64,000 nt of DNA from Rhodococcus sp. W8901 (GTDB lineage Bacteria > Actinomycetota > Actinomycetes > Mycobacteriales > Mycobacteriaceae), in NCBI RefSeq assembly GCF_013348805.1, contig NZ_CP054690.1, positions 3,286,001 to 3,350,000 on the forward strand, given 5' to 3'. A program made the translations under genes and the position numbers. Positions 24,467-40,939 of this stretch are shown here, piece after piece (position 1 is the stretch's first letter; each line of letters begins with the position of its first letter). The notes beneath the pieces are model-generated. The model made no database searches. It was not told the DNA's origin and saw nothing but the letters and a program-made list of their open reading frames with translations.

Positions 24467-27400
24467 TCATCGGAGATCGCCGTCCAGGCAGGCACCGACG
24501 ATCGGCCCGATCTCCGCGAGCGCCTCGGGCGTGGTGAGCCGGTTGTGCGTGTGACCGACCGGGTAGACCCGGACGGCACCGGTCACGAAGCGATCCCACG
24601 GCGTCTCTTGCCGTGCCGATCCGCCGTCGGCGGCGACGTAGACGAGGTCGCCGTCGAACACCGCGGGCCGGTAATTCTGTCCCAGCCCGACGGTGTGGAC
24701 GTAGTCGTCGTAGAGCCGGCGCAGGTCGTCGGCGGTCAACGACGCGTACGGTCCGCCGCTCTCGTGCAGCAGTTGCGCGGCGCGCTCCGGGGTGAGCTCG
24801 CCATCGCCGACGGCGGGCTCGTCGACGCCCGCGAACTCGGCGAACAGCATGCCCAGCGTCGGTGTCCGGGACGCCTCGGGAACCGAGTCGGAGGTCTGGG
24901 TGTCCAGCATGATCAGCGTCCCGACGTCCTCGCCGAGTTCGCGCAGTCGCACCGCCATCGCGTGGGCGATCGCACCGCCGACGGAGTACCCGAGCAGGTG
25001 GTATGGACCGTGGGGGCGTACCCGACGAATCAGCTCGACATACTCGCCGGCCAGTTCCTCCATGGACCCGGGATCGTGCCCGACATCGACCGTGCCGGGC
25101 GACTGCAGGCCGTACACCGGACGCGCTGTCGGCACGTACGGAACGAGTCCCGTGTAACACCCCACCAATCCGATCGCCGGATGCACACAGAACAGCGGGG
25201 CGCCGCCGTCCCCGGCCCGCATTCTCAACAGGTTGCCCATACGGTCCGGCGTCCCGGCGTCACCCGCGGTTCGCCGCGCGATCACCGCCGGCGTCGGGTC
25301 ACCGAACACCCACTGCATCGGCAGTGCCCGACCGAGTCGCGACTGCACCTCGGCGACCACCCGCACGGCGCTCAGCGAATTGCCGCCGAGCTCGAAGAAG
25401 TTGTCGTCGATGCCGACCCGCTCGGCGCCGAGGACGTCGGCGAACACCTCGCACAGCACCCGCTCGACGTCGGTGCGCGGCGGCCGGTACTCCCCCGCCG
25501 TGAACACCGGCGCGGGCAGCGCGCCGCGGTCGAGCTTGCCGTTCGAGTTCATCGGCACCTCGTCGAGGATCGTGATCGCCGACGGCACCATGTACGCCGG
25601 CAACGATGTCGCCGCGAACTTCCGCAGCGCAGCGCCGTCGACGACACCGTCCGGGGTGAGCCGGACGTACGACACCAGCACCGTCTCGCCGTTGGGCGCA
25701 TCGTGGCCGAGGGACGCGGCGAACTCGACGTCCGGGTGCGCGGTGAGGGCGGCGTCGACGTCCCCGATCTCGATGCGCAGGCCGCGGATCTTGATCTGGA
25801 AGTCGGTGCGCCCCACGTACTGCAGGCCGCGCCCGCCGCACCGGCGCACCAGGTCCCCGGAGCGGTACATTCGCGACCCGGCGCCGTCGAACGGGTTCGC
25901 GACGAACCTCTCCGACGTGAGCGCCGGCTGCCCCCGATAGCCCCGGGCCAGGCACGGGCCGAACAGGTACAGCTCGCCCTCGCCGCCGTCGGGCACCGGA
26001 CGCATCCAGCAGTCCAGGACGACGGCGCCGACACCGGACCGGGGCACCGGTCCCCCCATCGTGATCGGCGTCCCGGGCTCGAGGGACTCGCTGGTCGTCA
26101 CGCACACCGTGCACTCGGTGGGCCCGTACGCGTTGAGCAGGCGCGTGCGGGGCGCCCACGCGTCGACCAGTTCCGCGCCGAACAGCTCGCCGCCCACCTC
26201 GATCACCTGGACGTCGGGCAGCGATCCCGGCTCGATCGTCCCGCACACCGCGGGGGTGACCAGCAGATGCGTGATCCGCTCCTCCCGCGCGTAGGTCGCG
26301 AGTTCGGCGCCCGCGTACACGTCGGGCGGTGCCACCACCAACGTCGCGCCGGCGCCGAACGCGAGCATCAGTTCCAGGACCGAGACGTCGAAGCTCGGGG
26401 AACACACGTGCAGGATCCGCGATTCCGCGCTCGCCCCTTGATGTTCCACCTGTGCGACGGTCAGGTGCGGCAGACCGGCGTGCGTCACCACGACGCCCTT
26501 GGGCGCGCCGGTGGATCCGGACGTGTAGATGAGGTAGGCGGGATCGGCCATCCGGATCGGGTGGGTGCGTTCGTCGTCGCGGATCGGCGGTGCCGGATGG
26601 TGTTCCAGGTCGAGGCCGTCCAGCGGCAACCAGTCGAGTCCGCCCGGTAGCACGTGGGCACCGGTCGCGGTCAACCCCACCCGGGCGCCGCAGTCCCCGA
26701 GCATGTACTCGATGCGTCCCGGCGGCAGCTTCGGATCGATCGGTACGGGCGCCGCACCGCTCTTCGCGACCGCCCACGTGGCCGTCACCGACTCCGCCGA
26801 GCGCGGCACCGCGACCGGCACGAAGTCCTCCGGGCCCACACCCCGGTCGAGCAGCACCCGCGCCAACCGGGTGGAACGCTCGTCGAGTTCACGATAGGTG
26901 GTATCGATTCCGTTCCAGCGCAGCGCGATCGCGCCGGGATCGCGCGCTACCGCGTCCTCGAGAATCTGCGGCCAGGTCCGCGGCGGGACCGACGCCGACT
27001 CCGCCACGTCGACGAGTTCGGCGCGCCGCTCGTCGCCGAGCAGATCGATGCGTCCCACCGGCGTATCGGGGCGGTGCGCCACGGTCTCCACGACTCGACC
27101 CAGCCGCTGCGCGAGATCCGCGACGTCGACCGGCGCGAGCGCCTCCGGCGAGTACCGCAGGCGCATCCGCAGTCTCGTGTCCTCGAACGCCATCAGCGAC
27201 AGCGGGTAGTGCGTCGAGTCGTTGCCGACCACTCCGGTCACACGCAGTCCGGTGCGTTCGGTGAGGCGCGCGAGCGCGCCGGGATCCATCGGGTACGACT
27301 CGAACACCATCGCGGTGTCGAACAGTCCGCCGAAGCCGGCCGCCTGCTGAATCGCGGTGAGACCGCGGTACTCGTGCGGCATGAGCGCGGTCCGTTCCCG

Positions 27401-40939: not shown

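What the first reader, a model, noticed from the sequence alone, without database searches (positions are those of the whole stretch)
24467..40939. Orphan 5490-residue NRPS predicted to make an acylated D-L-D-L tetrapeptide
Seen: one uninterrupted gene with a leading C domain, four A-T pairs, E domains in modules 1 and 3, DCL-like C2/C4, LCL-like C3 and a terminal TE. No MbtH gene, ABC or MmpL exporter, siderophore hydroxylase or tailoring gene occurs from 22 kb to 46 kb, so the product is not an obvious siderophore or glycopeptidolipid. Known: a leading C domain before the first A often acylates the first residue, and E domains give D residues.
Basis: partly seen in the sequence, partly recalled or inferred. 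Interest (0 to 1): 0.82.

Follow-up and report, generated by a model that had tools for sequence, protein, structure and literature searches.

The report
Genus-wide four-module lipopeptide synthetase
A giant bacterial enzyme that very probably builds a fatty-acid-capped four-residue peptide; nearly every sampled member of one genus (the Rhodococcus equi group) carries the gene and no sampled member of other genera does, and two marine relatives carry a natural version that is exactly one step shorter, but the product is still unknown and the enzyme type is ordinary.

Summary
Confirmed: window 24467-40939 (-) is one intact 5490-aa NRPS, Cs-A-T-E | C-A-T | C-A-T-E | C-A-T-TE. In a C-domain tree C1 falls with starter C domains (EntF, RzmA; SH-aLRT 100), C2 and C4 with domains that follow E, C3 among domains that follow T. 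C1 has the small acyl-gate residues that in RzmA admit longer acyl chains, not EntF's bulky ones. Best reading: an N-acylated D-L-D-L tetrapeptide; residue identities uncertain. 'Orphan' and 'novel' need changing. Within the genus Prescottella 13 of 14 sampled genomes match at 66-100%; the 14th is a poor assembly with fragments. In 387 sampled genomes of the family's other genera the best match was 49%. Starter-C NRPSs are usual in Rhodococcus (Ceniceros 2017). New here, as far as my searches show: R. xishaensis and R. spongiicola carry a trimodular orthologue at the same site lacking exactly E3-C4-A4-T4, so a T3 of the kind that serves an epimerase feeds the TE directly; its place in the trees favours module loss. 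A ChaP-like VOC gene follows the NRPS in 8 of 12 other regions. No product, activity or MIBiG match could be tested.

The parts
24467..40939 (-). NRPS gene, 5490 aa, Cs-A-T-E-C-A-T-C-A-T-E-C-A-T-TE
   Evidence: single ORF
39533..40843 (-). C1, starter-type condensation domain (aa 33-469)
   Evidence: Pfam; starter clade SH-aLRT 100; best solved relatives RzmA-Cs, ObiF1, CDA PS1 C1, EntF
37982..39478 (-). A1 (aa 488-986), code DFWNFGVVFK
37721..37903 (-). T1 (aa 1013-1073), FALGGDS
36200..37684 (-). E1 epimerization domain (aa 1086-1580)
   Evidence: TIGR01720; E clade; RTVGWFT
34856..36154 (-). C2, DCL type (aa 1596-2028)
33320..34798 (-). A2 (aa 2048-2540), code DAFFAAAIMK
33044..33232 (-). 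T2 (aa 2570-2632), FDLGGNS
31634..32983 (-). C3, LCL type (aa 2653-3102)
30092..31579 (-). A3 (aa 3121-3616), code DVWNFGMVIK
29822..30010 (-). T3 (aa 3644-3706), FVLGGDS
28370..29779 (-). E3 epimerization domain (aa 3721-4190)
   Evidence: TIGR01720; E clade; RTVGWFT
27011..28306 (-). C4, DCL type (aa 4212-4643)
25535..26962 (-). A4 (aa 4660-5135), code DVLLEGAVCK, the same in 11 of 11 tetramodular copies, own included
25274..25459 (-). T4 (aa 5161-5222), FELGGNS
24470..25240 (-). TE (aa 5234-5490); Ser5319, Asp5346, His5465 the same in 13 of 13 copies
25241..29821 (-). block E3-C4-A4-T4 (aa about 3707-5233), absent from the trimodular orthologues of R. xishaensis and R. spongiicola
23981..24394 (-). 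VOC-fold protein close to ChaP, likely start 24364; possible operon partner
   Evidence: found in 8 of 12 other genus regions; H7, H61, E117 invariant in 7 of 7; ChaP-H1 E 8e-52
41158..41514 (-). 118-aa protein with two hydrophobic stretches (seen by eye), directly upstream, same strand; no Pfam or NCBIfam match
   Evidence: 9 of 10 tetramodular regions (not in G002, the closest), 0 of 2 trimodular regions

Best explanation
A single-protein lipopeptide assembly line. C1 (starter C) transfers a medium or long fatty acyl group from acyl-CoA or acyl-ACP onto residue 1 loaded by A1 on T1. E1 epimerises residue 1; C2 (DCL) condenses it with L-residue 2; C3 (LCL) adds residue 3; E3 epimerises residue 3; C4 (DCL) adds L-residue 4; the TE releases acyl-D-aa1-L-aa2-D-aa3-L-aa4 as a linear acid or a small ring. 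Residues 1 and 3 come from A domains whose codes resemble the Thr code, residue 2 is hydrophobic, residue 4 is not predictable. Shown: domain order, domain types, motifs, pocket residues, conservation. Inferred: acylation and its length, stereochemistry, residues, release mode, and use of an MbtH protein from elsewhere in the genome if one is needed.
For: Domain order. C1 in the first-C clade with EntF and RzmA, SH-aLRT 100; 13 of 13 first-C rows, 7 of 7 after-E rows and 7 of 7 E rows each lie on one side of a branch. Solved relatives of C1: RzmA-Cs 205 bits, ObiF1 188, CDA C1 184, EntF 159, then 87; the control C2 gives the reverse, 206-231 bits for McyB, PvdL, BacC and TycB, 49 for RzmA-Cs and 41 for EntF. 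Gate residues (RzmA numbering 138/143/148): window A/L/A; residue 148 is Ala in 12 and Gly in 1 of 13 Prescottella C1s; EntF Y/V/F. PMC7804268 (passages): as side chain 148 shrinks from Arg to Gly the acyl chain of RzmA products grows from C2 to C8 or C10, and Y138A/M143A/R148G takes it to C14, up to C16. GGDS carriers sit in modules 1 and 3 in 11 of 11 tetramodular copies, as expected (recalled rule) for carriers that serve E domains.
Against: No acyl ligase or exporter among the ten neighbouring ORFs scanned. Position 138 varies (A, T, S, I, V), so chain length may vary; the paper found M143A alone without clear effect. C1 is only 32% identical to RzmA over 418 columns. The small gate is not special to this NRPS: 5 of the 6 other first-C domains of this genome have Ala or Gly at 148 too. 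EntF is a long branch and EntF and RzmA have odd composition in the tree, which had no bootstrap. The codes of A1, A3 and A4 match no code I recall exactly. No product has been seen.
Confidence: 0.72

Rival explanations
1. Aryl-capped siderophore: C1 loads 2,3-dihydroxybenzoate or salicylate as EntF does, and the peptide chelates iron.
For: C1 is in one clade with EntF; module 1 scores 666 and 531 bits with the MxcG and EntF models, far below their cut-offs of 2300 and 2400; Letek 2010 listed IupU with catechol siderophores (passage).
Against: Gate residues are small where EntF has Tyr and Phe; no hydroxylase, DHB or siderophore uptake gene among the ten ORFs scanned around it; no code that I recall for hydroxy-ornithine.
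Confidence: 0.08
2. Short-acyl (acetyl, formyl) or free N-terminus: C1 uses a C2-C6 donor or is a vestige.
For: RzmA-Cs, the nearest solved relative, naturally uses acetyl (PMC7804268, passages).
Against: HHxxxDG of C1 is intact in 13 of 13; residue 148 is Ala or Gly in 13 of 13; dN/dS of C1 is 0.15-0.30 in 4 pairs.
Confidence: 0.15
3. A silent or decaying gene with no product.
For: No product was found in print; G003 carries it in pieces.
Against: Open in 12 other genomes; HHxxxDG, carrier serine, A3 core and TE serine motifs kept in 13 of 13; dN/dS 0.10-0.50; in G003 rpoB is broken too, which points to assembly error. The E motif R[ST]VGWxT is matched in 21 of 24 E domains; R. spongiicola E1 reads SHTVGWFT.
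Confidence: 0.03

Closest known systems
Starter-C lipopeptide NRPS families of rhodococci (Ceniceros et al. 2017, PMC5550956; NRPS-29 and NRPS-30 reported only in R. equi)
   Same: Same kind: NRPS with an N-terminal starter C domain. P. equi DSM 20307 carries this gene (its contig length is that of G004 contig 1), so it may be one of the listed R. equi families.
   Different: Which listed family it is could not be settled (figures not held). The sections read do not mention a genus-wide site or a trimodular form.
Humimycin A synthetase IupU
   Same: The same genome holds an 8955-aa NRPS with seven A domains that fits humimycin A (Tyr-Ser-D-Tyr-Phe-D-Thr-Val-Val) in what I could test: Ser code at 2, Thr code at 5, one code shared by 1 and 3, E in modules 3 and 5. 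Its last A-T-TE is the closest own-genome relative of the window's, 50%.
   Different: Seven modules, a partial second C after the starter C, an MbtH gene beside it; the window NRPS has four modules and other codes.
RzmA (rhizomide) starter C domain
   Same: Nearest solved relative of C1.
   Different: 32% identity; Ala at the places of Tyr138 and Arg148 (RzmA residues from PMC7804268).
EntF
   Same: Its starter C is in the same clade; also ends in T-TE (recalled).
   Different: Single module, aryl donor (recalled), bulky gate residues.
Mycobacterial glycopeptidolipid synthetases Mps1/Mps2 (recalled)
   Same: N-acylated tetrapeptide with several D residues.
   Different: From recall: several D residues ending in alaninol, with glycosyl and MmpL genes near. 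Not compared by sequence here.

Membership tests
NRPS, modular | repeated C-A-T modules with intact motifs | tested here: met
Starter-C lipopeptide NRPS | first C domain in the starter clade | tested here: met
   SH-aLRT 100
Starter-C lipopeptide NRPS | acyl pocket with small gate residue | tested here: met
   Ala or Gly in 13 of 13
Starter-C lipopeptide NRPS | product carries a fatty acyl group | not testable with these tools
   needs mass spectrometry or an in vitro assay
EntF-type aryl-capping NRPS | bulky gate (Tyr138, Phe148 in EntF) | tested here: not met
Siderophore NRPS | iron-regulated promoter (IdeR box) | tested here: inconclusive
   none in the window, but none in L011-L021 (other NRPS loci of this genome) either, so no positive control
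Siderophore NRPS | hydroxylase, DHB or uptake genes nearby | tested here: not met
   none among the ten ORFs called from 22 to 46.2 kb
Humimycin synthetase | seven modules, E in 3 and 5 | tested here: not met
Mycobacterial GPL synthetase | reductive end for alaninol (recalled) and GPL gene neighbourhood | tested here: not met
   terminal domain is a TE; neighbours are SDH, HSP20 and Mut7-C genes

The most novel reading that the evidence does not exclude
The lipopeptide is a conserved, genus-defining metabolite with a standing role (for example in the envelope or in signalling) rather than a strain-specific antibiotic, and its assembly line lost its last module cleanly in a marine lineage, so that a carrier domain of the kind that serves an epimerase (T3, GGDS) hands an acyl-tripeptide with an L end residue straight to a thioesterase that elsewhere releases acyl-tetrapeptides: a natural one-module shortening at a T-TE joint that still works.
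Probability: 0.35. Interest if true: 0.6.

Novelty: new member of a known kind. Interest (0 to 1): 0.38.

Why it matters
A single-gene, genus-wide lipopeptide synthetase is an easy target for linking gene to product in the R. equi group, where most NRPS products are unknown. The natural 3-module and 4-module orthologue pair gives a ready test of how a thioesterase and an epimerase-type carrier domain tolerate loss of a whole module, a practical problem in NRPS engineering.

Tried and rejected
Siderophore reading by iron box: no IdeR-like site with up to 3 mismatches in the window, nor with up to 5 in the window, in L011-L021 or near the NRPS start of 11 copies; no positive control, so dropped as evidence. 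Aromatic residue at A2 (my first reading of the code): weakened, because similar codes in the humimycin-type NRPS stand where Val was assigned, itself a prediction. Missing MbtH as an argument: dropped, two copies lie elsewhere. Origin of the E3-C4-A4-T4 block by copying from E1-C2-A2-T2: undecided; E1 and E3 are sisters in the tree (SH-aLRT 96), but C2 and C4 are not resolved as sisters, and by identity E3 is 48% to E1 and 49% to another locus, and A4's best is 52% to other loci. Naming the TE relative 7crn/7dxo (149 bits): no paper found. (rpoB tree) was wrong because antisense frames were picked for some rows; one search replaces it. Structure prediction and fold search were not used.

Rows left out: C domains under 330 aa and A domains under 380 aa were dropped before the tree and the code table, among them the second, partial C of two loci. 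Own-genome NRPS frames under 800 aa were not used, so not all 54 PF00668 matches entered. Only four of ten long-form C1 orthologues were in the C tree. The after-T rows need three changes on that tree; they form one side only together with the two tandem rows (29 rows, 99). G003 was left out of the protein trees and alignments (broken frames); its stretches L090 and L091 were fetched and not used. L078, L079 and L080 were left out of the VOC alignment. (C3 against solved structures) failed on frame and was not repeated. Of the ORFs called in the window (41), 27 were scanned with Pfam, the ones from 22 to 46.2 kb in full.

Full report
What is there. The ORF at 24467-40939 (-) encodes 5490 aa with one ATG start and no inner stop. 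Pfam places C-A-T, E-C-A-T, C-A-T, E-C-A-T-TE, and NCBIfam TIGR01720 marks the two E domains. Six HHxxxDG motifs, two RTVGWFT motifs, four carrier serines, four A3 cores and the TE GYSVGG motif are present; T1 and T3 read GGDS and T2 and T4 read GGNS. In the 13 genus copies compared (own, 10 long, 2 short) HHxxxDG, carrier, A3-core and GYSVGG motifs are all kept; the E motif R[ST]VGWxT is matched in 21 of 24 E domains. The Ser-Asp-His positions of the TE agree in 13 of 13.

Where it is. The window is part of a 5.71-Mb single-contig genome.

Type of the condensation domains. I extracted C and E domains from the window NRPS and the other NRPS loci of the genome, labelled them only by position (first; after E; after T; tandem; E), added EntF, RzmA and four orthologous C1s, and built a tree (56 rows, short search, no bootstrap). 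First-C rows (13), after-E rows (7) and E rows (7) each lie on one side of a branch with SH-aLRT 100; the 27 after-T rows do so only together with the 2 tandem rows (99). C1 is a starter C; C2 and C4 are DCL; C3 lies among the after-T (LCL) rows. EntF is a long branch, and EntF and RzmA differ in composition. Solved-structure searches agree: C1 hits RzmA-Cs, ObiF1, CDA C1 and EntF (159-205 bits), the next at 87; C2, as a control, hits McyB, PvdL, BacC and TycB (206-231 bits), RzmA-Cs at 49 and EntF at 41. C3 was not searched in this way (one search failed).

What the starter domain may load. In RzmA, residue 148 gates the acyl pocket: from Arg to Gly the chain grows from C2 to C8 or C10; adding Y138A moves it to C10-C12 and Y138A/M143A/R148G to C14, up to C16, while M143A or Q136A alone changed little (PMC7804268, passages). 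At 138/143/148 the window C1 has A/L/A. Among 13 Prescottella C1s residue 148 is Ala in 12 and Gly in 1, and residue 138 is A, T, S, I or V. EntF has Y/V/F. Five of the six other first-C domains of this genome also have Ala or Gly at 148; the sixth has Ile. I infer a medium or long fatty acyl donor, as probably for other NRPSs of this genome.

Residues. Codes were read by alignment to the EntF domain, whose code came out as DVWHFSLVDK, the Ser code (recalled). A1 DFWNFGVVFK and A3 DVWNFGMVIK look like relatives of the Thr code DFWNIGMVHK (recalled; that code occurs in three other A domains of this genome) but lack its His. A2 DAFFAAAIMK is hydrophobic; similar codes (DGFFVGAIMK, DAFFAAGIQK) stand at places 6 and 7 of the humimycin-type NRPS, where Val was assigned (table in PMC12024397). 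A4 DVLLEGAVCK matches nothing I recall. Conservation in the 11 tetramodular copies, own included: A4 11, A2 8, A3 8, A1 6 of 11, the others with one or two substitutions; those of A1 are at 278 and 299. The two short forms have DFWGLGVVFK, DAFFVAGVMK and DVWNFGMVIK.

Distribution. With C1-A1 as query, 13 of 14 genus genomes (own included) match at 66-100%. Of the other 387 genomes of the family sample, 22 passed E 1e-230, at 44-49%, in NRPS frames of other length (5937-8262 aa). In an order sample of 298 genomes only the own genome and two of those family members passed. The A4-T4-TE query found 11 of 401 at E 1e-256, all in the genus, and by that threshold missed the two short forms. These are samples, thresholds were high, and only the best two candidates of a genome were scored. 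The fourteenth genus genome, G003, is 79% complete and shows fragments (78% over 399 aa; TE 68%); its rpoB is broken as well, so sequencing error is likely.

The shorter form. G013 (R. xishaensis) and G011 (R. spongiicola) have a 3984- and a 3997-aa NRPS at the same site, between the SDH genes and the VOC and Mut7-C genes. The first 3.7 thousand residues are 70-71% identical to the window's and the TE 64-66%, but the block E3-C4-A4-T4 (window aa about 3707-5233) is missing and T3 runs into the TE. E3, C4 and A4 match the short form's E1, C2 and A2 at only 42-51%, and two separate assemblies agree, so assembly collapse is unlikely. T3 keeps GGDS. In the tree of modules 1-3 the short form lies inside the long ones by midpoint rooting. 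In rpoB trees with four outgroup genomes the long-form species form one group in 3% (DNA) and 0% (protein) of bootstrap trees, but the base is unresolved. Loss of the block is favoured, not proven.

Selection. dN/dS (NG86) for 11 domains in 4 species pairs runs from 0.10 to 0.50, highest in the G010-G012 pair.

Neighbours. Upstream in other regions: a 118-aa protein (9 of 10 long-form, 0 of 2 short-form), the succinate dehydrogenase flavoprotein (8 of 10, 2 of 2) and, less often, HSP20 (1 of 10; full in one short-form region and partial in the other). Downstream: the VOC protein (6 of 10, 2 of 2) and Mut7-C (9 of 10, 2 of 2); the G012 contig ends 1.3 kb after the NRPS. The VOC protein keeps His7, His61 and Glu117 in 7 of 7 and is closest to ChaP-H1 and ChaP among solved structures (E 8e-52); the Pfam glyoxalase and NCBIfam FosA models match it only below their cut-offs. 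It could tailor the product or be unrelated. The ten ORFs other than the NRPS called between 22 and 46.2 kb show no exporter, MbtH, acyl ligase or siderophore gene.

What is known. Letek 2010 counts 11 large NRPSs in R. equi 103S (PMC2947987, passages). Ceniceros 2017 reports 79 NRPS families in 28 strains of three genera, 69 with marks of lipopeptides, says that most Rhodococcus NRPSs begin with a starter C, and names NRPS-29 and NRPS-30 as found only in R. equi (PMC5550956, sections 8 and 9 and passages). I could not see the figure that would say which of these is the window gene. Prescottella sp. R16, whose chromosome length equals that of G010, was reported to have 13 gene clusters (PMC10972888, passages). 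PMC11433410 (passages) does not name R. equi or Prescottella. My searches listed no paper whose title or shown abstract reports this gene's product or the trimodular form: (capped listings of an open-access library). MIBiG, antiSMASH and NaPDoS were not available.

Verdict. What adds interest is the genus-wide presence and the natural three-module orthologue.

Noticed in passing
L089 5547-17501 and L088 6312-18305: Trimodular orthologues of the NRPS in R. xishaensis and R. spongiicola, lacking exactly E3-C4-A4-T4.
   Followed up: yes
own genome G000:C1 2878672-2905539 and 1021116-1033787: Two other NRPSs begin with a starter C followed at once by a second, partial C domain before the first A domain.
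   Followed up: no
own genome G000:C1 5230035-5254637: An 8200-aa NRPS begins with a starter C, a gap of about 110 residues and a full C of the after-T clade before its first A domain.
   Followed up: no
own genome G000:C1 992478-995075: An 865-aa protein of two C domains whose first carries HPALVDG in place of HHxxxDG.
   Followed up: no
own genome G000:C1 4379982-4427089: Three adjacent NRPS frames (5118, 3591 and 6944 aa) on one strand, a large assembly line.
   Followed up: no
own genome G000:C1 2878672-2905539: Testable codes and E positions fit the humimycin A peptide, so this is probably the IupU orthologue; an MbtH gene lies just before it.
   Followed up: partly
window 41158-41514: Conserved 118-aa protein with two hydrophobic stretches upstream of the NRPS, no match in Pfam or NCBIfam.
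   Followed up: partly
window 23981-24394: ChaP-like VOC protein downstream of the NRPS; an inner start at 24364 is the one shared by relatives, since L072 has a stop before it.
   Followed up: partly
G010 and G012: The succinate dehydrogenase flavoprotein found upstream of the NRPS in other genus members has no match at E 1e-150 in these two genomes.
   Followed up: no
window 48948-52604: A 1218-aa ORF with acyltransferase-3 and SGNH domains beside an aminotransferase gene.
   Followed up: no
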